Part shown: positions 12,407-25,982 of the stretch, one piece after another
Numbering within the stretch: position 1 is the first letter of the stretch
Layout of the letters: each line of letters starts with the position of its first letter
Notes under the pieces: generated by a model
Told to the model about the DNA's origin: nothing
Database searches by the model: none
Seen by the model: the letters and a program-made list of their open reading frames with translations, nothing else
Position numbers and translations under genes: made by a program
Assembly: GCF_000367945.1 (NCBI RefSeq)
Contig: NZ_KB849179.1
Coordinates: forward strand, 310,001 to 374,000
Length of the DNA stretch: 64,000 nt
From: Acinetobacter proteolyticus
GTDB lineage: Bacteria; Pseudomonadota; Gammaproteobacteria; Pseudomonadales; Moraxellaceae
Direction of reading: 5' to 3'

Positions 12407-12426
12407 TTGTTTTATATATAAAACAA
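12407..12426. promoter_or_regulatory. Candidate IclR operator 2, perfect palindrome
   Basis: TTGTTTTATATATAAAACAA is a perfect 20-base palindrome ending 14 bases before the first Rieske-cluster ATG. The half-site TGTTTTA recurs before the porin gene at 24670. Position near the start codon and downstream of the likely promoter suggests repression in the absence of inducer. Confidence 0.65.
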
Positions 12427-12440
12427 ATGAGGATGCAAGG

Positions 12441-12746
12441 ATGAGTTGGATCTCAGTTTGTCAGCAAGACGACGTTACCGAAGATGAGCCGAAAGCCATA
12501 GAAGTCGACGGTAAAAAAATTGGCGTATTTTTCATCGATGACAATTATTTTGCTATTGAGAATGTTTGCCCGCATGCCTTTGCCTTACTTACAGAAGGCT
12601 TTATTGAAGATCAAACCGTTGAATGTCCATTACATGAGGCCATTTTTGATATTCAAACAGGTGCGTTGAAAAGTGGACCAGGATGCCGCGATCTATGTAC
12701 TTATCCAGTACGTGTTGAAGGGCAGGACGTTCAAATTCAACTATAA
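12441..12746 (+). CDS. Rieske-type [2Fe-2S] ferredoxin of a ring-hydroxylating oxygenase
   Basis: 101 residues from the ATG at 12441 (ATGAGGA upstream; the longer reading frame would run through the operator). The Rieske cluster ligands are Cys43-Pro-His45 and Cys62-Pro-Leu-His65, with the usual spacing. Size and sequence match BphA3/HcaC/CarAc-like ferredoxins, which shuttle electrons from a flavoprotein reductase to the terminal oxygenase. The partner reductase is at 15885 and the oxygenase at 13089. First gene of the cluster. Confidence 0.9.
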   Translation: MSWISVCQQDDVTEDEPKAIEVDGKKIGVFFIDDNYFAIENVCPHAFALLTEGFIEDQTVECPLHEAIFDIQTGALKSGPGCRDLCTYPVRVEGQDVQIQL

Positions 12747-12771
12747 ATCTTATTTATAAGGATGGAATCTC

Positions 12772-13071
12772 ATGGAAACATTTAATAAGAAGCTAGCGAA
12801 CTGGATTCATGCCACGCCAGCGACTGAAGCAGGGATCAACAATATTCAGATACCAGGTCAGGCAGAGCTTCTGGTTTGGCAGACACGGTATAAAGCGCCA
12901 ACGGCCTATGAGCAAGATTTTGTTCAGTACTTAATTAAAGCCTTTGCAGCAGGTGTAACAGAACTTGGTGATTTAGTGCAGTCTTTAAATCAACAAGGCT
13001 TCCGTTGTGAATCTGGTGAGCTTTGGACTTCTGAAACCTTCTCAGAAGAAATGCAACGTTTAGGTTATTAA
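12772..13071 (+). CDS. Small protein resembling a recombinase-like helix-turn-helix domain
   Basis: 99 residues, placed between ferredoxin and oxygenase genes with AAGGATGGA before the ATG. The second half (ELGDLVQSLNQQGFRCESGELWTSETFSEEMQRLGY cut across positions 63-99) is laid out like the helix-turn-helix found in serine recombinases and HTH leaders: a helix, a GF turn, a W..E.F helix and a final LGY. The first half has a W.T.YKAPTAYE segment seen in small oxygenase-associated proteins. It has no recombinase catalytic domain. Its role in the oxygenase locus is unknown: it may be an assembly partner, a small oxygenase subunit or a regulator. Confidence 0.72.
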   Translation: METFNKKLANWIHATPATEAGINNIQIPGQAELLVWQTRYKAPTAYEQDFVQYLIKAFAAGVTELGDLVQSLNQQGFRCESGELWTSETFSEEMQRLGY

Positions 13072-13088
13072 TTCAAGGAAGAATAGTG

Positions 13089-14156
13089 ATGAACGCAGCA
13101 GTATCAGTAACACCAAGTGTAGAAGAATATTTAGATTTAGGTTTACGCGACCAATGGCATCCAGTGCTGGCAAGCTGGGAAGTGGCGGCTAATCCAGTCG
13201 GAATTACCCGTTTAGGCGAAAATATTGTGGTTTGGCGTGATGCAGAAGGTCAGGTTCATGCTTTGGAAGATCGCTGTCCGCATCGTGGCGCACGTCTTTC
13301 TTTGGGTTGGAACCTCGGTAATCGCGTTGCTTGTTGGTATCACGGTGTCGAAGTTCGCCATGATGGCGTGGTGGAAGATGTGCCTGCGGTACATGACTGC
13401 CCAATGAAAGGCACTTCATGTGTCAAAAGCTATCCTGTGATCGAGCAGCATGGCGCCATTTTCATGTGGTTTGGGATTGATGCCAATGAAGCCCCTAAGC
13501 CGCTCGATTTTCCTGAGCAACTGGCAAGTGAAGAATGGAGTTCATTCTTATGTCAGGCGGACTGGAAAGTGAATCATCAGTACGCGATTGATAATGTCAT
13601 GGACCCGATGCACGGTAGTTATTTGCACTGTACCTCACATTCGATGGCAGAGGGTGATCGTACTGCAGAAATGAAACATCGTTCGACGGAGCATGGTTTT
13701 ATTTTTGAAAAAGAAGGCCAAGTCGGTGTGAATTTTGACTGGGTTGAATATGCCAATACCGGTGCAAGCTGGTTACGCCTTTCAATCCCGTATCGTAAAG
13801 ATTTTGGTCCCGGTGGTGAGTTCTGGATTGTCGGTTATGCCACACCAATTGATGCCAACAATACCCGTGTATTTTTCTGGCGCTGCCGTAAAGTCAGTGG
13901 CTGGCAACGTAATGTCTGGCGTTTCCTTTACCGTAACTATCTAGAAAAATTGCATTGGGATGTGTTGGAGCAAGATCGGATTATTTTAGAAAATCTTGCA
14001 CCGAATGCCCGTCAACACGAATTCTTGTATCAACATGATGTTGGTCTGTCTCGTTTACGTCGCTTAATGAAAAAAGAAGCGGAAAAACAGTTAAAGAAAA
14101 TTGCAGCATTGAATACGTCGAATCGTATTGAAATGCAGGAACAAGTTCATGGTTAA
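13089..14156 (+). CDS. Rieske non-heme iron oxygenase, terminal (alpha) component
   Basis: 355 residues (ATG at 13089, AAGGA nine bases upstream; a GTG at 13086 is also possible). N-terminal Rieske domain: Cys63-Pro-His65 and Cys82-Trp-Tyr-His85. The catalytic domain has AIDNVMDPMHGSYLHC, giving the bridging Asp and iron ligands His175 and His180. No beta subunit gene is present, so the enzyme is probably an alpha-only oligomer, as in CarAa or vanillate demethylase types. It should hydroxylate an aromatic acid or heteroaromatic, either as a dioxygenase or as a demethylase/monooxygenase. Substrate unknown. Confidence 0.9.
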   Translation: MNAAVSVTPSVEEYLDLGLRDQWHPVLASWEVAANPVGITRLGENIVVWRDAEGQVHALEDRCPHRGARLSLGWNLGNRVACWYHGVEVRHDGVVEDVPAVHDCPMKGTSCVKSYPVIEQHGAIFMWFGIDANEAPKPLDFPEQLASEEWSSFLCQADWKVNHQYAIDNVMDPMHGSYLHCTSHSMAEGDRTAEMKHRSTEHGFIFEKEGQVGVNFDWVEYANTGASWLRLSIPYRKDFGPGGEFWIVGYATPIDANNTRVFFWRCRKVSGWQRNVWRFLYRNYLEKLHWDVLEQDRIILENLAPNARQHEFLYQHDVGLSRLRRLMKKEAEKQLKKIAALNTSNRIEMQEQVHG

Positions 14157-14913
14157 TGTCGCATTGTTACAGGGCAAAAAAGTCCTTGTCACAGGCGCGG
14201 CAAGAGGCTTGGGTCGAGACTTTGCACAAGCCATCGCGGAAGCAGGTGCGCAAGTGGTCATGGCTGATATCTTGACTGATCTGGTGCAACAAGAAGCTGC
14301 TGCTTTGCAAGCACAGGGTTTAACGGTGAATGCTGTAAGCATTGATCTGGCCAATGCCGACTCGATCCAGCAGGCCGTTCAGCAAGCAGCTGAACGCATG
14401 GGCGGAATGGATGGTCTGGTGAATTGTGCCGCACTGGCAACCAATGTGGGCGGTAAAAGCATGATGGATTATGACGCAAATCTTTGGGATCGAGTGATGA
14501 ACATCAATGTCAAAGGCACGTGGTTGGTGACCAAGGCATGTGTACCTTATCTCAAGCTGTCTCATGCCGGCAAGATTATTAATGTGGCTTCGGATACTGC
14601 TTTATGGGGTGCTCCCAACCTCATGGCCTATGTCGCGAGCAAAGGTGCATTAACCGCAATGACACGGTCCATGGCCAGAGAACTTGGGCCATTCAATATC
14701 TGTATTAACACGCTATCACCGGGTTTAACTCTCGTTGAAGCAACAGAATATGTGCCGCAGGAACGTCATGATTTATATGTCAACGGTCGTGCGATTCAAC
14801 GTCAGCAATTACCACAGGATTTGAACGGAACAGCCCTTTATTTATTGTCAGATTTGTCCTCGTTTGTGACAGGACAGAATATCCCAGTAAATGGCGGTTT
14901 TGTCTTTAATTAA
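14149..14913 (+). CDS. SDR, predicted dihydrodiol or hydroxy-acid dehydrogenase
   Basis: 254 residues from the ATG at 14149, which overlaps the oxygenase stop by eight bases and has GCAGGA in place. The motif TGAARGLG, Asp adjacent to MAD for NAD preference, NCAAL, and the Ser/Tyr/Lys set (NVASD, YVASK) are intact. Translational coupling to a Rieske oxygenase points to oxidation of its cis-dihydrodiol product to a catechol (inference from context). A different hydroxy compound cannot be excluded. Confidence 0.85.
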   Translation: MVNVALLQGKKVLVTGAARGLGRDFAQAIAEAGAQVVMADILTDLVQQEAAALQAQGLTVNAVSIDLANADSIQQAVQQAAERMGGMDGLVNCAALATNVGGKSMMDYDANLWDRVMNINVKGTWLVTKACVPYLKLSHAGKIINVASDTALWGAPNLMAYVASKGALTAMTRSMARELGPFNICINTLSPGLTLVEATEYVPQERHDLYVNGRAIQRQQLPQDLNGTALYLLSDLSSFVTGQNIPVNGGFVFN

Positions 14914-14924
14914 GGAGTCATCTC

Positions 14925-15857
14925 ATGATTACAGGGATTGAGATTTTAAAGTTTGGCGTTGAAGACAGAGCTGCTTCGAATAAGTTTTTGGCAGATTTTG
15001 GTCTTAAGCAAAGCCAGTCGGATATTGAAGGGGCGGATCTTTACCAGACACAAAATGGCAGTAAGATCTATTTATTTGATTGTGATGATCAACGTCTACC
15101 ACCCGCAATTGAATCAGGTTCAACCTTACGTGAAGTGACGTGGGGTTTAGATGATGCAGCACAGGATTTGGCAAATTTAGCATTAACGTTAAATGATGTT
15201 GATGGCTTTCAAGCCAGTGTTGATTTAGTGCAATGCGTTGATCCCAATGGCATGACCATTCGTTTTCAAAAGAGTTTTACGCAAGAGCTATCTGCTTTAA
15301 AAACCGAAGGCATTAATCAGTATGGCAATGTGCAACGTGTCAATGCAGCCAGTCCTGTGTATGACAAAGGTCAACCTGTTGCGATAGGTCATGTGGTGTT
15401 CTTTACTCCTGATTTAGAAAAAACTGAAAATTTCTATCGTGAGAAACTTAGTTTTCATTTATCGGATGCGTATCGCAATCGCGGTGCATTCTTACGCTGT
15501 CGCGGTAAAGGTTTCCATCATGATCTGTTCTTGCTTTCAGTGCCAAATAAACCTGCAGGACTCAATCACGTCGCATTCGTGGTTCGTGATATTCATGAGG
15601 TGATTGGTGGCGGATTGCATATGAACCGTTCGGATTGGTCAACCTTTATTGGTCCAGGGCGTCATCCGATTTCTTCAGCTTATTTCTGGTATGTCAATTC
15701 ACCACTTGGTGGGGCTTTTGAGTATTACACCAATGATGACTATTTGACTGAAGAGTGGCAGCCAAGGGTTGAAGAACATCGCTTAGAGCTTTTCACAGAA
15801 TGGGCGATTGAAGGTGGTCTGGATGATCACACCCGTCGTCAAGTCAAACCTGCATAA
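14925..15857 (+). CDS. VOC-superfamily extradiol ring-cleavage dioxygenase
   Basis: 310 residues with two vicinal-oxygen-chelate domains, the size of type I extradiol dioxygenases such as BphC. Iron ligands are readable in the C-terminal domain: His156 (IGHVVFF), His215 (LNHVAFVV) and Glu266 (GAFEYYTND), and His198/199 lies where the family has its catalytic histidine. AAGGAG precedes the ATG. It should open a catechol next to the hydroxyls, giving a yellow meta-cleavage product. Its place between diol dehydrogenase and reductase supports this. Confidence 0.88.
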   Translation: MITGIEILKFGVEDRAASNKFLADFGLKQSQSDIEGADLYQTQNGSKIYLFDCDDQRLPPAIESGSTLREVTWGLDDAAQDLANLALTLNDVDGFQASVDLVQCVDPNGMTIRFQKSFTQELSALKTEGINQYGNVQRVNAASPVYDKGQPVAIGHVVFFTPDLEKTENFYREKLSFHLSDAYRNRGAFLRCRGKGFHHDLFLLSVPNKPAGLNHVAFVVRDIHEVIGGGLHMNRSDWSTFIGPGRHPISSAYFWYVNSPLGGAFEYYTNDDYLTEEWQPRVEEHRLELFTEWAIEGGLDDHTRRQVKPA

Positions 15858-15884
15858 CGCAACATAGAGCAGGGAGTACAAGCA

Positions 15885-17096
15885 ATGGAAAGAATCGTAA
15901 TTGTGGGTGCAGGACAAGCAGCGGGTTGGGCGGTCAGTACTTTGCGCCAAAATGGATATTCGGGTGAAATCCATGTGGTCTCCAATGAGGATCGGGTCTT
16001 TTACGAAAGACCACCTTTGTCGAAACAAGTGTTGTCCAAAGAAGCCACTTATGAAAGCTTGCATCTGTTTTCTCCAGAGCAAGTGCAGGATTTTAATATC
16101 CAATGGCATAAGCCCGCGGTGGCAACGCAAGTCGATCGCCAGCAGAAACAAGTGGTTCTGGAAAGTGGTCAGGTTTTACCGTATGACAAATTGTTGATTG
16201 CAACTGGTAGCCGTGCGCGTGTTCCTGTGAATACGTGGCAGTTTATTCCGAATGTGGTGACGTTACGTAATGTTCAGGATTGTGAGCGTTTAGCCGAAAT
16301 CTTGCAGCATTCGCAAAAGTTAGCCGTGATTGGTGGTGGCTGGATTGGTTTGGAAATTGCAGCGACCGCACGTAAACAAGGTAAAGAAGTTCATATTTTT
16401 GAATATGGCGAGCGTCTATGCGCACGTAGTGTCAGCCCCGATGTCTCTGAGTTCTTGAAAAACATGCATGAGCAACAGGGTACACAAATTCATTTGAACA
16501 GTAAAAATCTGCATTTGATTGAAGCGGGTCAGCAAAAAGTCGAAGTCGTGAATCATCCACATGCAAGTGAGCTGTTTGACTGTGTGGTTGTTGGTGCAGG
16601 TGCAGATATTGCCAAAGAATTGGGCGTAAATGCGGGTTTGGATGTCAAAGATGGCATTGTGGTGAATGGTTTTGGTCAAACCTCTGATCAGGATATTTAT
16701 GCCGCAGGTGATGTTGCAATTCATCCAGGGCTTGGATATTGCATTCAATCATGGGCCAATGCACAGAATCAGGCGATCGCAGCAGCAAAATCAATGCTGG
16801 GTATTGAAACCGAATATAGCGATATTCCGTGGTTATGGTCAGATCAGTATCATTTCAATATTCAGATTTTAGGTACTTATCAACCTGAAAAAACAGGGCA
16901 GATTGTAGTTCGAAAAAGCGCAGATGATCAATGCAGTTATTTGTATTTAGATGATCAAAACCGTTTGTTGAACATGATCGCCATCAATGATTCAAAACTG
17001 GTCAAACTGGCAAAGCGCTGGATGCAGTCGAATACCGTGTTAGACCCAAACTTATTAGCAGACCCTGAATTTAATGTAATGAAATTAAAACCGTAA
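15885..17096 (+). CDS. FAD-dependent ferredoxin--NAD(P) reductase of the Rieske system
   Basis: 403 residues, the length of BphA4/HcaD/RodA-type reductases. FAD-binding GAGQAAG near residue 9, ERPPLSKQVL, ATGSR, the NAD-binding VIGGGWIGLEIA near 148, and YAAGDVA for the FAD ribityl are in the right order. It passes electrons from NAD(P)H to the Rieske ferredoxin at 12441. AGGGAG precedes the start. With this gene the three-component oxygenase is complete. Confidence 0.92.
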   Translation: MERIVIVGAGQAAGWAVSTLRQNGYSGEIHVVSNEDRVFYERPPLSKQVLSKEATYESLHLFSPEQVQDFNIQWHKPAVATQVDRQQKQVVLESGQVLPYDKLLIATGSRARVPVNTWQFIPNVVTLRNVQDCERLAEILQHSQKLAVIGGGWIGLEIAATARKQGKEVHIFEYGERLCARSVSPDVSEFLKNMHEQQGTQIHLNSKNLHLIEAGQQKVEVVNHPHASELFDCVVVGAGADIAKELGVNAGLDVKDGIVVNGFGQTSDQDIYAAGDVAIHPGLGYCIQSWANAQNQAIAAAKSMLGIETEYSDIPWLWSDQYHFNIQILGTYQPEKTGQIVVRKSADDQCSYLYLDDQNRLLNMIAINDSKLVKLAKRWMQSNTVLDPNLLADPEFNVMKLKP

Positions 17097-17111
17097 AGCT
17101 TAGAGTCTGTA

Positions 17112-17154
17112 GACATTTAAACCATCTGTGAAATGTCAACGGACCCTAGATCCG
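17112..17154 (+). other. Intercistronic hairpins before the MFS gene
   Basis: GACATTT (17112-17118) pairs with AAATGTC (17131-17137), and CGGA/TCCG follow at about 17140-17154. This 86-base gap is the longest inside the cluster. The hairpins could be processing or partial-termination sites separating enzyme and transporter expression. Confidence 0.35.
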
Positions 17155-17182
17155 GTTCATGACTCAATCGAAGGAATGAAGT

Positions 17183-18406
17183 ATGAGTAATGAAGAGAAA
17201 AGTGGATTAAAGCATTGGGTTCCTGCTTTTGTCCTGATGGTGTGTGTCGTACTGGCATTCTTCGACAAAATTAGTATCGCGGTCTTGTTTGCTGACCCGC
17301 ACTTTCAAGGTGCGATGGGAATTGCAGAGGATAAGGCCAAGCTCGGATGGCTCATGACCAGCTTCTTGTTGGCTTATGGGTTCTCTTCGGTGTTTTTAAG
17401 CTTTTTGGGCGATATTTTTAATCCGAAGAAAATGCTGTTCTGGAGCGTTGCATCGTGGGGCATTTTAATGTTCTGCATGGGATTTACTACCAACTATACC
17501 GGCATGTTGATCCTACGTGTTTTGCTCGGTTTGGCTGAGGGACCATTGTTTGCATTGGCTTATGCCATTGTGAAGCAAACCTATACCGATCGCCAGCAAG
17601 CGCGCGCTTCGACCATGTTCCTGTTGGGCACACCGATTGGTGCATTTCTGGGTTTTCCGATTACTGCGGCAGTATTAGCAAAGCATGATTGGCACACCAC
17701 GTTTTTTGTGATGTCTGGCCTCACCGTGGTTGCATTACTGGCAATTGCTTTTGGTCTACGTAATTTACAGCTCAAGAAAACCATCGAACTGGAATCGACC
17801 AGCAAACGTGTCAATTTCAAAGGACATATTCACAACACCAAACTTCTATTGCAGAACCGTGCATTTTGGTTGGTGTGTATCTTCAATATTGCATTGATGA
17901 CCTATCTCTGGGGCCTAAACAGTTGGGTACCTTCTTATCTGATTCAGGACAAGGGCTTTAACCTGAAAGAGTTTGGGGTTTATTCAAGCTTTCCATTCAT
18001 TGCCATGCTGATTGGTGAAGTGATTGGCGCATTCCTTTCGGACAAATTAGGCCGCCGTGCTATTCAGGTCTTCAGTGGCCTGTTGGTGGCAGGCATCTTT
18101 ATGTATGTCATGGTGATTATGACTGATCCGATTCTGGTGATCGCGGCAATGTCTTTAAGCGCAATGGCTTGGGGTTTTGGTGTCGCAGCAGTATTCGCCT
18201 TACTTGCCCGTGTCACAACTGCCGATGTTGGTGCAACTGCGGGTGGAATTTTCAACGGAATGGGTAATTTTGCCAGCGCAATTGCGCCTGTTCTGATCGG
18301 TTACATCGTGATGCAAACCCACAGTTTTAATTTAGGAATTACCTTCTTGGCAGCCGTTGCCGTGATCGGATCGTTCTTCTTAGTTCCTTTATTAAAACGT
18401 TATTAA
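17183..18406 (+). CDS. MFS transporter, probable aromatic-acid importer
   Basis: 407 residues with about twelve transmembrane helices. The helix 2-3 loop GDIFNPKKML, the helix-4 R(V)LLGLAEGP motif and an acidic residue in helix 1 (FFDKISIAV) fit the anion:cation symporter (ACS) branch that carries aromatic and sugar acids. GAAGGAATG gives the start. Inside the Rieske operon it most likely brings the substrate across the inner membrane, with the porin at 24736 serving the outer membrane. Confidence 0.87.
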   Translation: MSNEEKSGLKHWVPAFVLMVCVVLAFFDKISIAVLFADPHFQGAMGIAEDKAKLGWLMTSFLLAYGFSSVFLSFLGDIFNPKKMLFWSVASWGILMFCMGFTTNYTGMLILRVLLGLAEGPLFALAYAIVKQTYTDRQQARASTMFLLGTPIGAFLGFPITAAVLAKHDWHTTFFVMSGLTVVALLAIAFGLRNLQLKKTIELESTSKRVNFKGHIHNTKLLLQNRAFWLVCIFNIALMTYLWGLNSWVPSYLIQDKGFNLKEFGVYSSFPFIAMLIGEVIGAFLSDKLGRRAIQVFSGLLVAGIFMYVMVIMTDPILVIAAMSLSAMAWGFGVAAVFALLARVTTADVGATAGGIFNGMGNFASAIAPVLIGYIVMQTHSFNLGITFLAAVAVIGSFFLVPLLKRY

Positions 18407-18440
18407 TCAAACGGTTCATCAAAAACCTAGGAGTTAAAAC

Positions 18441-18962
18441 ATGACTACTCAACAATTCGAATCATGGACACAACCTGAAGGTACAAATTTACAAGACTGG
18501 TTGAATACCCGTATCGCACGCTTTGAAACACGTAAATATGATTTTGATGCCTTGAAGTTCCAAGCGGACTATGACCCGAAATATCGTCGCGCACAAATGC
18601 GTTATATGGGTACAGGTGCAACAGGTGTGGTTAATGATGGCAATACGGTTCCAGCTGAAAACTTTACCTTCTCAACCATGGTTTTACCTGCGCAATGTGA
18701 AGGGCCTTTGCATATTCATCACGATGTTGAAGAAGTGTTTTTCATGTTGCGTGGCGAAATTGACCTGTTCATTGAACATAACGGGGAAAAATTTGAGACC
18801 AGACTGAAAGAGCGTGACCTGATTTCAATTCCACCGGGTATTTATCGTGGCTTATTTAATCCAGGTCAGGAAGATGCCTTGATGTGTGTGATGTTGGGTG
18901 CGGGTAAACCAACCATTCCGAACTATCCACCTGAGCATCCATTGTCTCAAATCAAACGTTAA
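18441..18962 (+). CDS. Cupin-domain protein
   Basis: 173 residues, single cupin domain: HIHHDVEEVFFMLRGEIDLF carries the first metal motif (two His plus Glu), and ISIPPGIYRGLFNPG the second. TAGGAG lies upstream. Small cupins in aromatic loci serve as ring-cleavage dioxygenases, isomerases or decarboxylases, or as non-catalytic metal proteins. The dominant candidate here is processing of a ring-cleavage product (inference). Family certain, reaction unknown. Confidence 0.78.
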   Translation: MTTQQFESWTQPEGTNLQDWLNTRIARFETRKYDFDALKFQADYDPKYRRAQMRYMGTGATGVVNDGNTVPAENFTFSTMVLPAQCEGPLHIHHDVEEVFFMLRGEIDLFIEHNGEKFETRLKERDLISIPPGIYRGLFNPGQEDALMCVMLGAGKPTIPNYPPEHPLSQIKR

Positions 18963-18995
18963 TCCGATTGATCTTATAAATGTTGAAGGAATGAC

Positions 18996-19811
18996 ATGAT
19001 GACACTGATTGAGCGTTTAACTCACTATCCAGTCAAAACGGTTGCCGTAAATGGCGCTGTGCAAGCTTATCGTGAAGCAGGTCAAGGCCAGCCGCTGGTT
19101 TTGCTGCATGGAATTAGCTCAGGTTCAGCATCCTGGATTAAGCAGTTGGAGACACTCAGTCAACATTTTCATGTCATTGCTTGGGATGCACCCGGTTATG
19201 GTTTATCCGATGGTTTAAACATAGATCAACCCAATGCAGCCGATTATGCGGAGCGAGTATTGGGCTTGATAGATGCGTTGAACATTTCAAAAGCTATTGT
19301 AGTTGGACATTCATTGGGTGCTTTACAAGCCAGTGCTTTTGCCCATCTTTATCCTGAACGGATACAGACCTTAATCATTGCCAATGCAGCACAAGGTTAT
19401 CAACGTTCCGATGAAGAAACCCAAGCACAAGTTTATCAAAAACGCCCGAATATGTTGAAAAGCTTGGGCAATGCAGGCATGGCTACCAGCCGTGGACCGC
19501 ATTTGATTTATAAACAAGACCCTCAGGCACTGGCTTTGGTCAATGAGGTGATGGGGCAACTAACATTAGAGGGTTTTACCCGAGCATCTTATTTGTTGGC
19601 CTATGACGAAATTCGAAATTATTTAACACAACTTACTGTTCCTTGTGTGGTGATTGCGGGTGACAAGGATGGAATTACGCCTGCGCAAGCGATCAAGGAA
19701 CTTGCTGTAGAAATGCAATTGAGCCGATGTCATCTCATTACAGATGCAGGTCATCTGAGTTATGTCGATCAACCTGAACAGTTTAACGACATTGTTTTAT
19801 CGGCACATTAA
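18996..19811 (+). CDS. Alpha/beta hydrolase, predicted meta-cleavage product hydrolase
   Basis: 271 residues (tandem ATGs at 18996 and 18999; AAGGA just upstream). Oxyanion segment LLHGISSGSASW, nucleophile elbow VVGHSLGA, acid in AGDKDGITP and histidine in DAGHLSYVDQP make a full Ser-Asp-His triad. Size and sequence match C-C bond hydrolases of the BphD/MhpC/XylF group. Next to an extradiol dioxygenase, hydrolysis of the ring-opened product is the best guess. A plain esterase or amidase role is possible. Confidence 0.83.
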   Translation: MMTLIERLTHYPVKTVAVNGAVQAYREAGQGQPLVLLHGISSGSASWIKQLETLSQHFHVIAWDAPGYGLSDGLNIDQPNAADYAERVLGLIDALNISKAIVVGHSLGALQASAFAHLYPERIQTLIIANAAQGYQRSDEETQAQVYQKRPNMLKSLGNAGMATSRGPHLIYKQDPQALALVNEVMGQLTLEGFTRASYLLAYDEIRNYLTQLTVPCVVIAGDKDGITPAQAIKELAVEMQLSRCHLITDAGHLSYVDQPEQFNDIVLSAH

Positions 19812-19827
19812 GGCTTAAACGAGAGAT

Positions 19828-20628
19828 ATGGATATGAGCTTCCAAGTTGAAGGAAAAGTAGCAGTTGTCACAGGTGGCTCGTCAGGCATTGGTTTGGCTG
19901 CAGTCGAAATTTTAGTTGCAGAAGGTGCCAAGGTGGCATGGTGCGGTCGAGATGAGCAGCGTTTGGCTGCATCAAAACTGTATATTTTAGAAAAATATCC
20001 GCATGCCAATATCTTCACCAGTATCTGCAATGTCTTGGATAAAGAAGATGTAAAACGTTTTGCACAACAGGTCAATCAACATCTGGGCAATGTCGACATG
20101 CTAATCAATAACGCAGGTCAGGGACGTGTGTCTAATTTTGAAAATACCCAAGACGAAGACTGGATGAAGGAAATTGAACTGAAGTATTTCAGTGTATTAC
20201 ATCCAGTACGGGCATTTTTAAATGATTTAAAACATTCGGCATACGGGTCGATTACCAATGTGAATTCTTTGCTGGCACTGCAACCTGAGCCGCATATGAT
20301 TGCGACTTCATCTGCACGTGCAGCACTGCTGAATTTAACCCATTCATTGGCGCATGAATTTACCCAGTACGGTGTTCGGGTCAATTCAATCCTGTTAGGC
20401 ATGGTGGAATCAGCACAGTGGAAACGCCGTTTTGAAACCCGTTCAGATCCAAATGCAACATGGGAACAGTGGACAGGCAACATTGCCAAGAACCGTGGCA
20501 TTCCGATGCAGCGTTTAGGCAAGCCAGAAGAACCCGCGCGTGCCTTGGTGTTCTTGGCATCACCTTTAGCATCGTATACCACAGGTTCGACACTGGATGT
20601 CTCTGGTGGATTTAACAAACATTTATAA
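19828..20628 (+). CDS. SDR-family protein with altered catalytic residues
   Basis: 266 residues. The nucleotide-binding TGGSSGIG (15-22), NNAG (94-97) and a C-terminal TGSTLDVSGGF are normal. The active site is not: Ser147 is followed thirteen residues later by Thr160, and four further on by Arg164, where classical SDRs have Tyr and Lys. The surrounding HMIATSSARAAL aligns plainly with the YxASK region, so this is substitution rather than misalignment. It may use a different acid-base or be non-redox. Start at ATG 19828 or 19834. It belongs to the Rieske cluster. Confidence 0.82.
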   Translation: MDMSFQVEGKVAVVTGGSSGIGLAAVEILVAEGAKVAWCGRDEQRLAASKLYILEKYPHANIFTSICNVLDKEDVKRFAQQVNQHLGNVDMLINNAGQGRVSNFENTQDEDWMKEIELKYFSVLHPVRAFLNDLKHSAYGSITNVNSLLALQPEPHMIATSSARAALLNLTHSLAHEFTQYGVRVNSILLGMVESAQWKRRFETRSDPNATWEQWTGNIAKNRGIPMQRLGKPEEPARALVFLASPLASYTTGSTLDVSGGFNKHL

Positions 20629-20637
20629 GGTGTTCAC

Positions 20638-21429
20638 ATGAAACAGTTGATGATGATTGGTTTTGGAGCGATGGCAGCAGAAGTGTATGCGCATATGCCC
20701 CAAGACCTGCAACTTAAATGGATTGTGGTCCCTGCACGTAGTGTCGAAAAAGTACGGGCGCAGGTTGCGGCTGATGTGCAAGTGATTAGTTCAATCGAAC
20801 AATGTCAGGGGACACCGGACTATGTAATTGAAGTGGCTGGTCAGGCAGCGGTGAAAGAACATGCGCAAAAAGTGCTGGAAAAAGGCTGGACCATTGGCCT
20901 GATCTCTGTGGGCACTTTGGCCGATAACGAATTTTTAATTCAGCTGAAAACCACGGCAGAACAAAACGATGCGCATCTGCATTTATTGGCAGGCGCAATT
21001 GCCGGGATTGATGGGATCTCTGCAGCTAAAGAAGGTGGTCTGGAAAAGGTCACCTATAAGGGCTGTAAGAGTCCAAAAAGCTGGCGTGGTAGCTATGCAG
21101 AGCAATTGGTTGATCTCGATCAGGTCAGTGAAGCAACGGTTTTTTTCCGTGGTACAGCCAGAGAAGCAGCTTTGAAATTTCCAGCCAATGCCAATGTAGC
21201 CGCCACGATTGCACTGGCTGGGCTGGGCATGGATGACACTATGGTTGAGCTGACGGTTGATCCGAGCATTAACAAAAACAAGCACACCATTGTAGCAGAA
21301 GGTGTATTTGGTGAAATGACCATTGAACTGGTGGGGGTGCCATTGGCAAGTAATCCCAAAACCTCAACCTTGGCTGCATTAAGTGTGATTCGCGCTTGTC
21401 GCAATAGCGTTGAAGCAATTCAGATTTAA
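20638..21429 (+). CDS. L-aspartate dehydrogenase-like protein (DUF108 family)
   Basis: 263 residues, normal for aspartate dehydrogenases. N-terminal Rossmann fold (MIGFGAMAAEVY), AGAIAGIDG, a FPANANVAATIALAG block and NKHTI with the conserved histidine of the catalytic domain. The family reversibly deaminates L-aspartate to oxaloacetate or iminosuccinate with NAD(P). NadX feeds NAD synthesis, but this copy sits in a catabolic operon, so it may handle an amino-dicarboxylate or imine released from an N-containing substrate (inference). I recall a comparable gene, PA3505 of Pseudomonas aeruginosa, also sitting in a catabolic set; this needs checking. Confidence 0.83.
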   Translation: MKQLMMIGFGAMAAEVYAHMPQDLQLKWIVVPARSVEKVRAQVAADVQVISSIEQCQGTPDYVIEVAGQAAVKEHAQKVLEKGWTIGLISVGTLADNEFLIQLKTTAEQNDAHLHLLAGAIAGIDGISAAKEGGLEKVTYKGCKSPKSWRGSYAEQLVDLDQVSEATVFFRGTAREAALKFPANANVAATIALAGLGMDDTMVELTVDPSINKNKHTIVAEGVFGEMTIELVGVPLASNPKTSTLAALSVIRACRNSVEAIQI

Positions 21430-21441
21430 AAGGATTTGATC

Positions 21442-22908
21442 ATGGTAAAGGAAATTTATATCGCAGGTGAATGGCGATTAGGTAAAGGCGCTACGATTCA
21501 AAGTTTATTTCCAGCAGATCAATCGGTGAATGCTGAAATTTCAACGGCGAGTCTGGATGATGTCAATGAAGCCATTGAAAAGGCAGATGCGGCTTGGCGT
21601 AAGGCGGAATGGCGCAACAGCATGCCGCATGAACGTGCCCGTATTTTATATAAAGTGGCCGACATTATTGAAGCGCGTGTGGATGAACTTTCAAAGCTAC
21701 AAACCCGTGATAATGGCAAGCCCTTGGCTGAAACCCGTGCCTTGACCATGAGTGCTGCGGCAACAGCGCGTTATGTGGCCGCAGCCTGTGAAACCTTAAA
21801 TGATGAGCTGACCACGCAACGTGCCGCAGATTTTATGACCATGAGCGTGTATGAGCCCGTAGGTGTAGTCGCTGCAATTACCCCGTGGAACTCACCGATT
21901 GCCAGTGAAGTGCAAAAATTGGCACCGACACTTGCGGGCGGCAATGCCGTGATTCTAAAACCAGCAGAAGTGACTTCTTTGATTGCATTGGAACTCGCCA
22001 AAATCTTTGAAGAAGCAGGCCTGCCAAAAGGTTTGCTCAGTGTACTGGTCGGACGCGGTTCGGTGATTGGTGATGCGATTGTGAAGCATCCTTTGGTACG
22101 TAAAATTTCATTTACCGGTGGAACCACTACGGGTCGTCATCTGGCACATCTTGCTGCAGATAAACTGATCACCACCTCTTTGGAACTTGGTGGAAAATCA
22201 CCAACGATTGTGTTGCCAGATGCAGATATTGAATTGGCAGCCAAAGGTGTGGCTTACGGTATTTTCAGTTCGGCTGGACAAGCCTGTATTGCCGGTTCGC
22301 GTCTGTTTGTACACAGCAGTATTTATGATCAATTTCTCAGTCGTTTGGTTGAAATCACCAAAGGCTTGCGCGTTGGGCATCCTGAAACCGCAGGTGTACA
22401 TCTCGGCTCTTTGATTAATCCGAAACATTTGGCTTCTGTTGATGACTATGTACAGCTCGCGAAACAAGAAGGTGGACAAGTTCTTGTGGGTGGTCATGCC
22501 TTAACCGAAGGTGAATTTGCCAAAGGGAGCTATTACTTACCAACCATTATCACTGGTTTAAGCAATTCAGCGCAAACCTGTCAGGAAGAGATTTTTGGCC
22601 CTGTACTGGTGGTGATGAAATATGACGATGAACAAGACTTGCTTGCACAAGCCAATGACAGTTGTTTTGGTCTTGCCGCAGGCATCTGGACTGAAAACTA
22701 TCGTAAGGCATGGCAAATTGCCCGTGCTTTAGAAGTCGGTACAGTCTGGATTAATACCTATAAGAAATTCTCGATTTCAGCGCCATTTGGTGGCTTTAAA
22801 GAAAGTGGCATTGGTCGTGAAAAAGGTCGTTTAGGCATTTTGTCTTATATGCAACAAAAAAGCATCTATATGGGATTAAGCGAGCAGCCAAATCCTTGGG
22901 CGAATTAA
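21442..22908 (+). CDS. NAD(P)-dependent aldehyde dehydrogenase of the Rieske cluster
   Basis: 488 residues from the ATG at 21442, seven bases after AAAAGGA; a TTG at 21436 is inferior. PWNSP with Asn, LELGGKSPT with the general-base Glu, and SSAGQACIAG with the catalytic Cys are all present. It resembles betaine-aldehyde and hydroxymuconic-semialdehyde-type dehydrogenases. The ThDP enzyme next door may supply its aldehyde by decarboxylating a 2-oxo acid, or it may oxidise a meta-cleavage semialdehyde (inference). Confidence 0.88.
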   Translation: MVKEIYIAGEWRLGKGATIQSLFPADQSVNAEISTASLDDVNEAIEKADAAWRKAEWRNSMPHERARILYKVADIIEARVDELSKLQTRDNGKPLAETRALTMSAAATARYVAAACETLNDELTTQRAADFMTMSVYEPVGVVAAITPWNSPIASEVQKLAPTLAGGNAVILKPAEVTSLIALELAKIFEEAGLPKGLLSVLVGRGSVIGDAIVKHPLVRKISFTGGTTTGRHLAHLAADKLITTSLELGGKSPTIVLPDADIELAAKGVAYGIFSSAGQACIAGSRLFVHSSIYDQFLSRLVEITKGLRVGHPETAGVHLGSLINPKHLASVDDYVQLAKQEGGQVLVGGHALTEGEFAKGSYYLPTIITGLSNSAQTCQEEIFGPVLVVMKYDDEQDLLAQANDSCFGLAAGIWTENYRKAWQIARALEVGTVWINTYKKFSISAPFGGFKESGIGREKGRLGILSYMQQKSIYMGLSEQPNPWAN

Positions 22909-22946
22909 TACATTCATGGAATGAACAGTTTTTGAGGAATATACCA

Positions 22947-24587
22947 ATGACAGAACGTGTAAATGTCGGCGAAGCCATCGCCCGTGTTTTAGAAGCACAC
23001 CAAGTTGACAGTATGTATGGAGTGATCTCGATCCATAACTTACCGATTGCTGATGCCGTCGGTCGCCGTGAAAAAATCCGTTTTGTGGCGGCACGCGGTG
23101 AAGCAGGTGCGGTCACCATGGCAGATGGCCACTCTCGTTTTAAAGGACTCGGTGTGGCATTAACCAGTACGGGTGCTGGTGCAGGTAATGCAGTCGGTTC
23201 ACTGATTGAAGCAATGAATGCAGGCAGTCCTGTTTTACACTTAACTGGGCAAGTGGAGCGTGAATATTTGGATCGTGATGCCAGCTTTATTCATGAAACC
23301 AAAGATCAGCTGACTTTCTTACGTGCATCAAGCAAAGCTGCTTTCCGTATCACCAGTCCTGACAATGCGGTGGGTGTGATTCGTGAAGCGATTCGTGTAG
23401 CCACTACCGTACCAATGGGACCAGTCAGTGTTGAGTTGCCGATTGATGTACAGGCAGCAGAAATCGATTTGCCGCTGAACTTGGGGCCAGTAAAAGCACT
23501 GGAATTGCCACAAGCTGAACAGGTGGAAGTTGACCTGATTGTCGATGAACTGAAGAAAGCCAAACGTCCCGTGTTCTGGATTGGTGGTGGAACGCTGAAC
23601 AGTGTTGCAGAAGTCAAGGCGATTGCCGATCTTGGGATTCCTGTGGTGTCATCGACCCATGCGCGTGGTGTATTGGCCGATGATCATCCGCGTAGCCTAG
23701 GTGCTTTCCATAACTCGGCAGGGGTTGAGCAGTTGCTCAAAGAGGCTGATTTATTGGTGGTGGTCGGTTCACGCTTACGCAGTAATGAAACCAAAACCTA
23801 TTCCGTGCAATTCCCTGACAATATTATCCAGATTGATGCCAATCCTGTGGCACAACAGCGTAATTACAAAGTGCGTAACTTCATCTGTGGCGATGCCAAA
23901 GATGTACTGCAACGTGTATTGACGGGCTTGCAAGGCGTATCCAAAGTTGATATGGAATATGATGCAGCGGTGGTGAAAGCGAAACAGGCGGCGATTGAGG
24001 CATTACGTACCCAGTTGGATCAGTACGCTTTAATCTGTGATCATTTACGTGCCGCATTGCCGCAAGACGGTATTTTTGTACGCGATATTACTATGTCAGG
24101 CAGTACCTGGGGCAGCCGTTTATTCCCAGTACAGGAACCGAATCAAAATATTCACTCTTTAGCAGGTGCGATTGGTTTGGGTCTAGCAACGGCAATTGGC
24201 GCGTCGATTGCCAATCCCGACAAGAAAGTCATTGGCTTGGTCGGTGATGGTGGTTTGATGCTAGGCATTGGTGAAATCGCAACCATGGCGCAAGAAAATA
24301 CCAATATGGTGCTGATGATCATGAATGACGGTGGCTATGGCGTGATGCGTGGCATCCAAAAGAATTACTTCGGTGGTCGCCAGTATTTCAATGAATTGCA
24401 TACCCCAGACTATAAAGTTCTAGGCGAAGCCATGGGCGTGAAAAGCTGGAAAGTAGGCAGTGCAGAGGAATTCAAAACTGTGATTCAGGAAGCCATTGCT
24501 TTCCAAGGGCCAAGTGTGATTGAACTCGACATGCATTCAATTGGGCCATTGAACTTTGCTGGTCCACCACAGAAAAAATTGTATTAA
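22947..24587 (+). CDS. Thiamine-diphosphate-dependent enzyme (acetolactate synthase/benzoylformate decarboxylase superfamily)
   Basis: 546 residues from the ATG at 22947 (GAGGA eight bases upstream; the frame is open further up but overlaps the aldehyde dehydrogenase end). The catalytic glutamate of the PYR domain is in RGEAGAVTMADG, and the ThDP/Mg motif starts GDGGLML and ends in MNDGGYG. Three-domain layout is normal. Such enzymes decarboxylate 2-oxo acids or carboligate them. In this cluster decarboxylation of a 2-oxo acid fragment is likely. The substrate pocket cannot be read. Confidence 0.86.
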   Translation: MTERVNVGEAIARVLEAHQVDSMYGVISIHNLPIADAVGRREKIRFVAARGEAGAVTMADGHSRFKGLGVALTSTGAGAGNAVGSLIEAMNAGSPVLHLTGQVEREYLDRDASFIHETKDQLTFLRASSKAAFRITSPDNAVGVIREAIRVATTVPMGPVSVELPIDVQAAEIDLPLNLGPVKALELPQAEQVEVDLIVDELKKAKRPVFWIGGGTLNSVAEVKAIADLGIPVVSSTHARGVLADDHPRSLGAFHNSAGVEQLLKEADLLVVVGSRLRSNETKTYSVQFPDNIIQIDANPVAQQRNYKVRNFICGDAKDVLQRVLTGLQGVSKVDMEYDAAVVKAKQAAIEALRTQLDQYALICDHLRAALPQDGIFVRDITMSGSTWGSRLFPVQEPNQNIHSLAGAIGLGLATAIGASIANPDKKVIGLVGDGGLMLGIGEIATMAQENTNMVLMIMNDGGYGVMRGIQKNYFGGRQYFNELHTPDYKVLGEAMGVKSWKVGSAEEFKTVIQEAIAFQGPSVIELDMHSIGPLNFAGPPQKKLY

Positions 24588-24626
24588 TCCCGTTGAGCAT
24601 TGGCAGTCCGTGCTGATGTGAAGACT

Positions 24627-24658
24627 GTTTTATGGGCAAATTTTTTTGTCCATAAAAC
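24627..24658 (+). terminator. AT-rich hairpin after the ThDP gene, possible terminator or double half-site
   Basis: GTTTTATGGGC at 24627-24637 pairs with GTCCATAAAAC at 24648-24658, eleven pairs with one G-T wobble and a ten-base loop. It contains GTTTTA half-sites like the IclR operators, so it may be a regulator site as well as, or instead of, a terminator. Confidence 0.45.
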
Positions 24659-24669
24659 GATAAAAACTA

Positions 24670-24687
24670 TGTTTTATAGGTAAAACA
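24670..24687. promoter_or_regulatory. Candidate IclR operator 3, before the porin
   Basis: TGTTTTATAGGTAAAACA has perfect seven-base arms TGTTTTA/TAAAACA around a four-base spacer. It lies 49 bases before the porin ATG and shares its half-site with the palindrome at 12407, tying the porin to the Rieske regulon. Confidence 0.6.
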
Positions 24688-24735
24688 AAAAGCTAGCCAA
24701 CAGGATCGTTGGAACAAAAACCAAGGAATTAAGAG

Positions 24736-25929
24736 ATGAAAAAGACCTCTATAGCCATGCTATTTGCTGCATTTTATTTGGGTACCACATCCCATGTTTT
24801 TGCACAAAGCTCAGCACTAGAATGGAAAAGTGAAGATGGAACGGATTCGGTAAAATTGGGTGGCGTGGTGCGACTCAACCAACGTTATGAAAATTGGGAA
24901 GGATCCAATGGCGGTTTTGGTAAGCTGTATTTTGATATTTTCAGGGTAGATCTAAAAGGCAAATTTGACGACGCTTATTTTAATGCCAGTTATCTGTTTC
25001 AGGATCAAGAGAAACGCTCGATTGAGAAAGCTTATGTCGGCTATAACCTTGATCAAAATAATAGTATTGAAGCAGGGCTGGTGTATAAACCTTTTGCAAT
25101 TTATCCTTATCCGCAAAATGGCTGGACTTATCATATTCCGTTTTTCTTGGGCTATGGCAATAACATTGCACCTGGGTTGAACTGGAATTTTAACAACAAG
25201 GATTGGGATATCAAATTAGGCTATTATCCGCAAATGCTGGATACCAGCCTGCGTTATTCACCAGAAAGTGCGACCTATGATGATTTGGCCGAGAATGCCT
25301 TTCCCACCCAAAAAGCCTATCAAAATGAAAAGCGCCATCAATTGAATACGCGCATCGTACGTAAATTAGAAACTGATTTTGGCAAGCAAGAATTTGGTGT
25401 ATCGGGAGCTATTGCGCAATTGCATAACAAGACCACTGATAAAAATGGTCAGTATTATGCAGTCGGTCTGCATACCGATAATAATTACAAACGCTTTAAT
25501 TTACAAAGCTCTGTGATTCATTATCAATATGATGCCAAAAACCCAGAAGGGGTCAGTAATGATGTCACATTGATGGGCAATAATGGCTTTACCCCTGCGT
25601 ATTTCATTGCTTCAGAAGCCACAGTTGCCAGTTTAAATTTGGCTTATACCTTACCTGTACAGGATATGGGCAAACTCAAAGCCATCCGTTTCTATAATGA
25701 CTATAGTTATATGGACAAGAAACGTACGGATTGGTCAGCCTCACAGATGAATACCACAGGGATGATGTTTATCGCGTCACCGTTTATGGTGTGGGCAGAT
25801 TATACTTGGGGTAAAAATGCCAATATTATTGGTGGCGCTTCCAATGCCACAGGTTTTACTTCAACGGTTTCACCTTATAGCGACCAATGGCTTTATCGAA
25901 TCAATCTCAATATTGGCTTTAGTTTCTAA
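24736..25929 (+). CDS. Outer-membrane porin with signal peptide
   Basis: 397 residues. A signal peptide (MKKTSIAMLFAAFYLGTTSHVFAQ) is cleaved near residue 24. The body alternates polar and aromatic residues in beta-strand pattern and ends in a terminal Phe (NIGFSF), the assembly signal of outer-membrane barrels. It looks like the phosphate-selective-porin-like barrels associated with aromatic and organic-acid uptake. AAGGAATTAAGAG precedes the start. Likely outer-membrane entry route for the substrate of the cluster. Confidence 0.83.
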   Translation: MKKTSIAMLFAAFYLGTTSHVFAQSSALEWKSEDGTDSVKLGGVVRLNQRYENWEGSNGGFGKLYFDIFRVDLKGKFDDAYFNASYLFQDQEKRSIEKAYVGYNLDQNNSIEAGLVYKPFAIYPYPQNGWTYHIPFFLGYGNNIAPGLNWNFNNKDWDIKLGYYPQMLDTSLRYSPESATYDDLAENAFPTQKAYQNEKRHQLNTRIVRKLETDFGKQEFGVSGAIAQLHNKTTDKNGQYYAVGLHTDNNYKRFNLQSSVIHYQYDAKNPEGVSNDVTLMGNNGFTPAYFIASEATVASLNLAYTLPVQDMGKLKAIRFYNDYSYMDKKRTDWSASQMNTTGMMFIASPFMVWADYTWGKNANIIGGASNATGFTSTVSPYSDQWLYRINLNIGFSF

Positions 25930-25951: not shown

Positions 25952-25982
25952 AGAGTGAGTCATACCCATGATTCACTCTTTG
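25952..25982 (+). terminator. Rho-independent terminator after the porin
   Basis: AGAGTGA..TCAT pairs with ATGA..TCACTCT around ACCC, ending in TTTGTG. It closes the Rieske-porin region and lies before the convergent AraC gene. Confidence 0.7.

What the first reader, a model, noticed from the sequence alone, without database searches (positions are those of the whole stretch)
12441..25929. IclR-controlled Rieske / meta-cleavage cluster of unknown substrate
Thirteen close-packed genes plus a porin encode a three-component Rieske oxygenase, predicted diol dehydrogenase, extradiol dioxygenase, C-C hydrolase, cupin, MFS, atypical SDR, aspartate-dehydrogenase-like enzyme, aldehyde dehydrogenase and ThDP enzyme. 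The usual hydratase/aldolase of meta pathways is missing; an aspartate dehydrogenase and a ThDP enzyme take that space. This differs from ben, hca, bph, ant and iac clusters known to me, and suggests an N-containing or side-chain-bearing aromatic. A partly similar set may exist around PA3505 in Pseudomonas aeruginosa (recollection, to be checked).
Basis: partly seen in the sequence, partly recalled or inferred. Interest (0 to 1): 0.8.

Follow-up and report, generated by a model that had tools for sequence, protein, structure and literature searches.

The report
Probable kynurenate breakdown gene cluster
A tightly packed, widely shared bacterial gene set looks like the missing genes for eating kynurenic acid, a tryptophan product that acts on nerves and immune cells; the gene set is certain, the compound it breaks down is inferred.

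Summary
The cluster is real: 13 packed genes plus a porin; the divergent IclR gene lies just outside the given span. A VOC ortholog is in 52 of 149 genus genomes, and the gene set recurs in enterobacteria, Burkholderia relatives, alphaproteobacteria and Pseudomonas-like genomes; the PA3505 recollection is supported. A palindrome repeated between iclR and the ferredoxin gene recurs before the porin (4 copies in 64 kb, 0.04 expected). In 49 full-length relatives, all 8 loci without the Rieske gene carry a phenol-hydroxylase-like flavoenzyme and 39 of 41 with it do not; in a wider set 11 of 21 flavoenzyme loci have both: two doors, sometimes side by side. The hydroxypentadienoate aldolase is missing from 14 of 18 cluster genomes. 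Best reading: catabolism of kynurenate (and xanthurenate), the 'quinoline pathway' known biochemically since 1961-63. Rieske enzyme, SDR1, VOC, SDR2, ThDP enzyme and aldehyde dehydrogenase match its recalled steps; cupin, hydrolase and aspartate dehydrogenase would open the pyridine ring to 2-oxoglutarate plus aspartate, closing the C10 balance. I saw no paper naming genes for it (open-access library, capped lists). The substrate is inferred, not shown (0.56).

The parts
11363..12208 (-). IclR-family regulator (PcaR/PcaU/PobR-like), divergent
   Evidence: TIGR02431 155 bits, below cut-off 284.75
12262..12425 (.). three copies of a palindrome (12262-12279, 12349-12366, 12408-12425), candidate IclR operator around a promoter-like site (TTGACA at 12352)
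12441..12746 (+). Rieske-type ferredoxin of the oxygenase (mechanical ORF begins at a TTG at 12348; ATG 12441 preferred)
12772..13071 (+). 99-aa HTH_62 protein that travels with the Rieske gene, role unknown
13086..14156 (+). Rieske oxygenase alpha subunit; proposed kynurenate 7,8-dioxygenase
14128..14913 (+). SDR1; proposed cis-dihydrodiol dehydrogenase (ATG near 14149 likely)
14925..15857 (+). VOC type I extradiol dioxygenase; proposed 7,8-dihydroxykynurenate 8,8a-dioxygenase
15885..17096 (+). ferredoxin reductase (HcaD-like)
17183..18406 (+). MFS transporter; proposed uptake of the organic anion
   Evidence: TIGR00893 189 bits, below cut-off 395
18441..18962 (+). cupin; proposed second ring-cleaving dioxygenase
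18996..19811 (+). alpha/beta hydrolase; proposed N-acyl-enamine (amide) hydrolase
19828..20628 (+). SDR2, atypical centre, ortholog of P. aeruginosa Q9HYA2; proposed enone reductase
20638..21429 (+). aspartate dehydrogenase family; proposed iminosuccinate to L-aspartate
21436..22908 (+). aldehyde dehydrogenase; proposed formylethyl to carboxyethyl
22896..24587 (+). ThDP-dependent enzyme; proposed 2-oxo-acid decarboxylase
24670..24687 (.). fourth palindrome copy (2 mismatches), upstream of the porin
   Evidence: no Pfam, NCBIfam or PDB match
25952..25979 (+). terminator-like stem-loop after the porin
   Evidence: 18 such sites found in the region, 13.8 expected

Best explanation
The cluster imports and degrades kynurenate (4-hydroxyquinoline-2-carboxylate), with xanthurenate as a second entry in relatives. 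Proposed steps: porin + MFS uptake; the Rieske oxygenase makes the 7,8-dihydrodiol; SDR1 oxidises it to 7,8-dihydroxykynurenate; VOC cleaves bond 8-8a to 5-(3-carboxy-3-oxopropenyl)-4,6-dihydroxypicolinate; SDR2 reduces the enone; the ThDP enzyme decarboxylates the 2-oxo acid; the aldehyde dehydrogenase gives 5-(2-carboxyethyl)-4,6-dihydroxypicolinate; the cupin cleaves C4-C5 with O2; the hydrolase splits the amide to 2-oxoglutarate plus 2-aminofumarate/iminosuccinate; aspartate dehydrogenase reduces this to L-aspartate (RidA, in some relatives, would hydrolyse it). C10 = C5 + C4 + CO2. Shown here: genes, residues, conservation, the Rieske/flavoenzyme pattern and the repeated palindrome. Inferred: every substrate, the step order after VOC, and that IclR binds the palindrome.
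For: (1) Enzyme classes match the quinoline pathway steps (steps recalled from KEGG/EC; titles of the founding papers, on 7,8-dihydroxykynurenate and on L-glutamate, D/L-alanine and acetate from kynurenate, seen in reference lists). Asp and 2-oxoglutarate would explain Ala and Glu. (2) In 49 full loci, 8 of 8 without RoA carry a flavoenzyme nearest to 3-hydroxybenzoate 6-hydroxylase (below its cut-off, two members scanned), 39 of 41 with RoA lack it; SDR1 motif 25 of 41 v 0 of 8, HTH_62 34 of 41 v 0 of 8. Kynurenate and xanthurenate (8-hydroxykynurenate) would need just this. (3) 14 of 18 cluster genomes lack the 4-hydroxy-2-oxovalerate aldolase domain. (4) TRAP and ABC carriers in relatives and an MFS here suit an organic anion (recalled). 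(5) A Mo-hydroxylase follows RoA-ThDP-VOC in Caballeronia NK8, as quinaldate to kynurenate would need; RidA in 10 loci fits an enamine. (6) TDO in 9 of 15 Rieske-gene genomes v 98 of 383 others, p=0.006; TDO and kynureninase about 9 kb from the cluster in G976. (7) The cupin profile's best PDB match is quercetinase QueD (E 2e-5), oxalate oxidase close behind (3e-5).
Against: No experiment on any of these proteins with kynurenate. The pattern in (2) is weaker than it looks: the 8 Rieske-less loci are all alphaproteobacterial, and all 10 flavoenzyme loci among the 49 carry a diverged VOC (about 25% identical to the window's), so lineage or a different substrate could explain it; in 99 loci of 15 kb or more, 11 of 21 flavoenzyme loci also have RoA, and only 5 have a window-type VOC. 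The window's genome has no TDO. At my thresholds none of the 80 named loci, 31 of them shorter than 20 kb, has TDO or kynureninase; 1 of 9 TDO genomes has them near. The TDO statistic ignores kinship and genome size. The hydrolase's best PDB relatives are esterases and C-C hydrolases. SDR2 as enone reductase is a guess. The cupin model (pLDDT 73) matches cupins in general. 6 of 49 loci show no VOC. Mo-hydroxylases are in 4 loci only and differ (26-34% to the NK8 one).
Confidence: 0.56

Rival explanations
1. The same logic, but another bicyclic N-heteroaromatic carboxylate (quinaldate, another hydroxyquinoline, an isoquinoline or indole carboxylate) is the true substrate; kynurenate is at most an intermediate or analogue.
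For: Mo-hydroxylase next to RoA-ThDP-VOC in Caballeronia NK8; duplicated VOC and ThDP genes there suggest parallel substrates; two VOC subfamilies exist; no gene reads the 4-hydroxyl directly.
Against: Kynurenate puts N and a carboxyl so that aspartate and 2-oxoglutarate fall out with exact carbon balance (chemical inference); Mo-hydroxylases in 4 of 153 loci scanned, some of them overlapping.
Confidence: 0.21
2. Phenylalanine / m-tyrosine pathway: the Rieske enzyme or flavoenzyme makes 2,3-dihydroxyphenylalanine, VOC cleaves it, the hydrolase releases L-aspartate plus hydroxypentadienoate, and aspartate dehydrogenase makes oxaloacetate.
For: Explains aspartate dehydrogenase, the C-C hydrolase likeness and the Rieske/flavoenzyme pattern by analogy with the hca/mhp routes (recalled).
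Against: 14 of 18 genomes lack the aldolase domain for hydroxypentadienoate, although the window's genome has one elsewhere; cupin, SDR2, ThDP enzyme and aldehyde dehydrogenase would be idle or need an unknown route; Mo-hydroxylase unexplained.
Confidence: 0.06
3. An aromatic acid without ring nitrogen (nitrogen-free, or an amino-acid conjugate of an aromatic acid); aspartate dehydrogenase, RidA and ThDP enzyme serve side reactions or the amino-acid half.
For: No call shows a nitrogen atom in the substrate; VOC, hydrolase and ALDH have relatives in nitrogen-free pathways; an M20 amidohydrolase gene (13-1284) has a palindrome copy about 260 bp upstream.
Against: Aspartate dehydrogenase is in 46 of 49 full loci, as constant as ThDP (46) and hydrolase (47); no M20 gene is among the 13 genes.
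Confidence: 0.13

Closest known systems
Kynurenate 'quinoline' pathway of Pseudomonas extracts (Hayaishi 1961, Taniuchi and Hayaishi 1963, Dagley and Johnson 1963; only titles seen, in reference lists)
   Same: Recalled order of enzyme classes: dioxygenation to a dihydrodiol, dehydrogenation, extradiol cleavage, reduction, decarboxylation, aldehyde oxidation; end products consistent with Asp and 2-oxoglutarate.
   Different: No genes assigned in the papers I could search; the cupin/hydrolase/aspartate dehydrogenase end is inferred here.
PA3498-PA3511 region of Pseudomonas aeruginosa (gene numbers partly recalled)
   Same: SDR2 = Q9HYA2; PA3499 is a YjgF/RidA protein; three genomes of an unnamed, presumably Pseudomonas genus have SDR1-cupin-ABH-IclR-SDR2-ThDP-AspDH-ALDH-VOC-(FMO in 2 of 3)-RoA-RidA-VanB.
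   Different: Other gene order, VanB-type reductase instead of HcaD-type, IclR inside, extra RidA and flavoenzyme; PAO1 itself could not be opened.
A. baumannii ATCC 17978 A1S_0944 to A1S_0958
   Same: Tags named ferredoxin (0945), aspartate dehydrogenase (0956), betaine-aldehyde dehydrogenase (0957), acetolactate synthase (0958) fall in this order; A. baumannii records match four of the proteins at 83-94%.
   Different: Tag-to-gene match is by name and order, not by sequence; no substrate in the passages read.
hca/mhp and and/ant clusters
   Same: Ferredoxin and reductase parts, diol dehydrogenase and extradiol logic.
   Different: No beta subunit, no hydratase/aldolase, different lower half.
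lum cluster for lumichrome (PMC12746152; abstract and Discussion read)
   Same: Rieske oxygenase, extradiol enzyme and ThDP decarboxylase for an N-heteroaromatic.
   Different: P450, xanthine-oxidase-like enzyme, two-subunit ThDP enzyme, hydratase and retro-aldolase; none in this cluster.

Membership tests
Kynurenate quinoline pathway | oxygenase giving a 7,8-dihydrodiol | tested here: inconclusive
   Rieske system present with ligands; substrate not testable here
Kynurenate quinoline pathway | NAD-dependent diol dehydrogenase | tested here: inconclusive
   SDR1 with canonical S-Y-K; its motif only in loci with the Rieske gene among 49; activity untested
Kynurenate quinoline pathway | extradiol 8,8a-cleavage | tested here: inconclusive
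   VOC has the metal and acid/base residues; substrate untested
Kynurenate quinoline pathway | 2-oxo acid decarboxylation, then aldehyde oxidation | tested here: inconclusive
   ThDP enzyme and ALDH present; activities untested
Kynurenate quinoline pathway | growth on or conversion of kynurenate | not testable with these tools
   needs an experiment
Classical meta-cleavage pathway (hydroxypentadienoate type) | hydratase and aldolase in the cluster | tested here: not met
   absent from the cluster; aldolase domain PF07836 absent from 14 of 18 genomes, present elsewhere in the window's own genome
Type I extradiol (VOC) dioxygenases | 2-His-1-Glu site plus second-shell His/His/Tyr | tested here: met
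   H156, H215, E266; H199, H247, Y256 (roles by recalled comparison)
Three-component Rieske oxygenases, alpha-only (VanA_C type) | alpha with Rieske + VanA_C, separate Rieske ferredoxin and flavin reductase, no beta | tested here: met
Aspartate dehydrogenase family | Asp_DH_C domain and family score over cut-off | tested here: met
   PF01958; NF009828 449 bits, cut-off 177
Classical SDR oxidoreductases (for SDR2) | catalytic Tyr and Lys | tested here: not met
   T160 (98%) and R164 (100%) instead, 58 sequences
lum (lumichrome) cluster | P450, Mo-hydroxylase, two-subunit ThDP enzyme | tested here: not met
   none among the genes of 9930-28820 that were scanned

The most novel reading that the evidence does not exclude
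This is the gene set of the kynurenate/xanthurenate pathway, without assigned genes for about 60 years as far as I could see, and it ends in an undescribed ring-opening route: a quercetinase-like cupin cleaves a 4,6-dihydroxypicolinate, an alpha/beta hydrolase splits the N-acyl enamine, and an aspartate dehydrogenase rescues the reactive imine as aspartate, so the ring nitrogen leaves as an amino acid and not as ammonia.
Probability: 0.42. Interest if true: 0.85.

Novelty: new variant of a known kind. Interest (0 to 1): 0.67.

Why it matters
Kynurenate is an immune- and nerve-active tryptophan product; a 2018 review knew its microbial breakdown only from Pseudomonas and Aerococcus (passages of PMC5770815). 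If right, sequences can be given to several enzymes that (from memory) are orphans: kynurenate 7,8-dioxygenase, its dihydrodiol dehydrogenase and 7,8-dihydroxykynurenate dioxygenase. Kynurenate breakdown would become readable in any genome or metagenome, and the 'aspartate dehydrogenase' of P. aeruginosa and A. baumannii would get a catabolic role. A question open since 1963 becomes directly testable.

Tried and rejected
Ordinary hca/ant/ben/iac type cluster: rejected; no beta subunit, no lower meta pathway, and NCBIfam cut-offs not reached by ferredoxin, reductase or VOC. Lumichrome cluster: considered after a paper search, rejected on gene content. Aromatic-aspartate conjugates: no M20 or amidase gene inside the cluster; not fully excluded, because an M20 amidohydrolase gene lies at 13-1284 with a palindrome copy upstream. 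DOPA-type 4-substituted catechol cleavage: would not free aspartate (reasoning only).

Led nowhere: paper searches on aspartate dehydrogenase + Rieske, kynurenate degradation, EC numbers, xanthurenate degraders (25 of 299 listed), intermediate names (40 of 181 listed). PDB search of the porin. Fold of HTH_62 (three helices, pLDDT 74.6, best PDB E 1.8), which is no evidence that the fold is new. Fold of the cupin: many cupins with close scores, ring-cleaving and non-oxygenase ones mixed. The first form of the palindrome pattern was wrong and found nothing. TDO/kynureninase linkage: 0 of 80 named loci. The promoter scan as a whole found fewer sites than shuffles (21 v 25.3).

Thresholds are mine and can miss diverged copies (ALDH 37 of 49). 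In some searches the longest-ORF rule picked antisense ORFs in GC-rich loci, so gene content rests on tblastn mapping. The palindrome pattern was taken from the copy at 12408, so that copy is no independent hit. On checking I lowered the main odds from 0.60 to 0.56 because one search shows the flavoenzyme beside RoA in 11 of 21 loci and because of the M20 gene.


Full report
WHAT IS THERE. The window lies in an Acinetobacter genome (inferred: VOC at 65-97% identity in same-genus genomes, and A. baumannii records at 83-94%). Thirteen genes in one direction, 12441-24587, are followed by a porin-like gene (24736-25929); a divergent IclR gene is at 11363-12208 (ORFs and family scans). The ferredoxin's ATG is 12441; SDR1 and the ThDP enzyme have ATGs later than the mechanical TTG starts.

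IT IS A CONSERVED UNIT. VOC orthologs of 65% identity or more occur in 52 of 149 genus genomes, the window's included. In 8 Acinetobacter loci mapped in detail, chosen by me among these, the order Fdx-HTH62-RoA-SDR1-VOC-FdR-MFS-cupin-ABH-SDR2-AspDH-ALDH-ThDP is kept as far as each locus reaches. Relatives with names: Klebsiella, Caballeronia, Burkholderia, Cupriavidus, Novosphingobium, Streptomyces, Nitratireductor and Vibrio plasmid records (Burkholderia and Cupriavidus seen as search hits only, the others mapped gene by gene) and 80 genome loci, among them Enterobacter, Raoultella, Serratia, Yersinia, Rhizobiales and roseobacters. Among the 49 of the 80 that are at least 20 kb long: cupin 49 (the bait), hydrolase 47, SDR2 47, AspDH 46, ThDP 46, VOC 43, RoA 41, ALDH 37. 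At phylum level 15 of 398 evenly drawn genomes, the window's included, carry the Rieske gene at E 1e-60.

THE PSEUDOMONAS LINK. SDR2's best PDB match is the P. aeruginosa oxidoreductase Q9HYA2 (3lf1/3lf2, E 1.4e-95; the organism is recalled from the accession). In an unnamed genus that I take for Pseudomonas, 3 of 25 genomes have SDR2, and all three loci show SDR1-cupin-ABH-IclR-SDR2-ThDP-AspDH-ALDH-VOC-(flavoenzyme in 2 of 3)-RoA-RidA-VanB-type reductase. PA3499 is a YjgF/RidA protein (a table of PMC1884159). The recollection of PA3505 is thus supported, although PAO1 could not be opened by name.

REGULATION. The palindrome TGTTTTATATATAAAACA has a perfect copy at 12408 and weaker ones at 12262 and 12349 around the ferredoxin promoter; a fourth, with 2 mismatches, is at 24670 before the porin. 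With up to 3 mismatches 4 are found in 64 kb, 0.04 expected (the pattern itself comes from 12408). In the whole genome the pattern has 14 places against 5 for the reversed control; the best is 12408; one 2-mismatch copy lies 260 bp left of the window, upstream of an M20 amidohydrolase gene. In all 8 other Acinetobacter loci scanned a copy lies beside the ferredoxin gene; copies also precede the porin in L045, L055 and L056 and the flavoenzyme in L055. I read this as the IclR operator; binding is untested.

TWO DOORS TO ONE CATECHOL. Of the 49 full loci, 8 lack RoA and all 8 have a flavoenzyme whose nearest NCBIfam model is 3-hydroxybenzoate 6-monooxygenase (below its cut-off; two members scanned); of 41 with RoA, 39 lack it (Fisher p about 1e-7, not corrected for kinship). 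SDR1's motif (25 of 41 v 0 of 8) and HTH_62 (34 of 41 v 0 of 8) travel with RoA. A Rieske dihydroxylation plus dehydrogenation and a phenol hydroxylation give the same catechol when the second substrate is the mono-hydroxy form of the first; kynurenate and xanthurenate are such a natural pair. Two cautions. The 8 loci are all alphaproteobacterial, and all 10 flavoenzyme loci of the 49 have a diverged VOC. In the wider set of 99 loci of 15 kb or more, 21 have the flavoenzyme: 11 of them also have RoA, 10 do not (Vibrio L058 among these), and 5 (L055, L075, L187, L208, L209) pair it with a window-type VOC. So the two entries replace each other in some lineages and coexist in others.

WHY KYNURENATE. 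The quinoline branch of tryptophan catabolism was worked out in Pseudomonas extracts; I saw the titles in reference lists (L-glutamate, D/L-alanine and acetate from kynurenate; 7,8-dihydroxykynurenate; [quoted passage not shown]), and recall its steps from KEGG. Every recalled step has an enzyme of a fitting class here. The remaining three genes would open the pyridine ring: cupin dioxygenase at C4-C5, hydrolase at the amide, aspartate dehydrogenase on iminosuccinate. That gives 2-oxoglutarate (C5), aspartate (C4) and CO2 (C1) from C10, and accounts for Glu and Ala. This last part is my inference. RidA, which handles enamines (recalled), is in 10 loci, a Mo-hydroxylase of the xanthine dehydrogenase family in 4, a sulfatase in 8 (153 loci scanned, some overlapping). 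In Caballeronia NK8 the Mo-hydroxylase genes follow RoA, a ThDP gene and a VOC gene, as expected if quinaldate feeds in (quinaldate 4-oxidoreductase recalled).

WEAKER OR CONTRARY POINTS. TDO is commoner in genomes with the Rieske gene (9 of 15 v 98 of 383, p=0.006; the two draws of 398 are taken as the same), without correction for phylogeny. TDO and kynureninase lie about 9 kb from the cluster in G976, with unrelated genes between; none of the 80 named loci shows this at my thresholds, and the window's genome has no TDO, so it would have to import its substrate. The hydrolase resembles C-C hydrolases and esterases. The cupin's best PDB profile matches are quercetinase and, almost level, oxalate oxidase. 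SDR2's missing Tyr and Lys argue against an alcohol dehydrogenase and leave its reaction open.

THE LOWER META PATHWAY. The aldolase domain PF07836 is absent from 14 of 18 cluster-bearing genomes; the window's genome has one copy elsewhere. A classical hydroxypentadienoate route is therefore no general requirement of the cluster. This is the main argument against the phenylalanine / m-tyrosine rival, which I raised because it also frees aspartate.

PRIOR KNOWLEDGE. In an open-access library (10 searches; two searches listed only part of their hits) I saw no paper that names genes for kynurenate breakdown or assigns this cluster. Subscription journals are mostly not covered. A. baumannii tags of the cluster appear in a mucin transcriptome (A1S_0956-0958 up 2.2-2.4), in a biofilm-only list (A1S_0945, 0946, 0956) and as a lux promoter trap (A1S_0947, with the 0944-0945 gap cloned); passages read only.

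VERDICT. Observation confirmed; a widespread, coherent catabolic unit; kynurenate/xanthurenate as substrate at 0.56.

Noticed in passing
12772-13071 and relatives (A6): A 99-aa HTH_62 protein occurs only with the Rieske gene among 49 full loci (34 of 41 v 0 of 8), next to ferredoxin and alpha here; it could be an accessory subunit and not a DNA binder.
   Followed up: partly
5880-6980 (+) and 7718-8797 (-): Two agmatine deiminase genes, 75% identical, face each other around a pair of small multidrug resistance family genes (7040-7354, 7358-7666).
   Followed up: partly
G000:C3:309740, 260 bp left of the window; gene at 13-1284: A 2-mismatch copy of the cluster's palindrome, reverse complement of the one before the porin, upstream of an M20 amidohydrolase gene of the allantoate/N-carbamoyl group: a possible second operon of the regulon.
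   Followed up: partly
L042, L043 (other Acinetobacter genomes): A different cluster with two VOC enzymes 35-38% identical to this one, ALDH, reductase, hydrolases and a flavin monooxygenase; a further unassigned ring-cleavage system.
   Followed up: no
L071, L073, L098, L120, L132, L189, L190, L191: A sulfatase gene lies in or beside the cluster (39-100% identical to the one in L190), suggesting that a sulfated phenol may be a natural substrate form.
   Followed up: partly
L058, L098, L104, L111 and others: A second VOC subfamily (about 25% identical to the window's) goes with the flavoenzyme in 10 of 10 full loci that have the flavoenzyme; its substrate may differ.
   Followed up: partly
P. 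aeruginosa PA3505: A Tn-seq study lists this aspartate dehydrogenase gene as required in 3 of 4 host-like media (passages of PMC9732424), odd for a catabolic gene.
   Followed up: no
25998-30708: Next to the cluster: an AraC-type regulator (QhpR-like, below cut-off), an FMO-like flavin monooxygenase, a PF10118 predicted metal-dependent hydrolase and an alpha/beta hydrolase; seems a separate unit.
   Followed up: no
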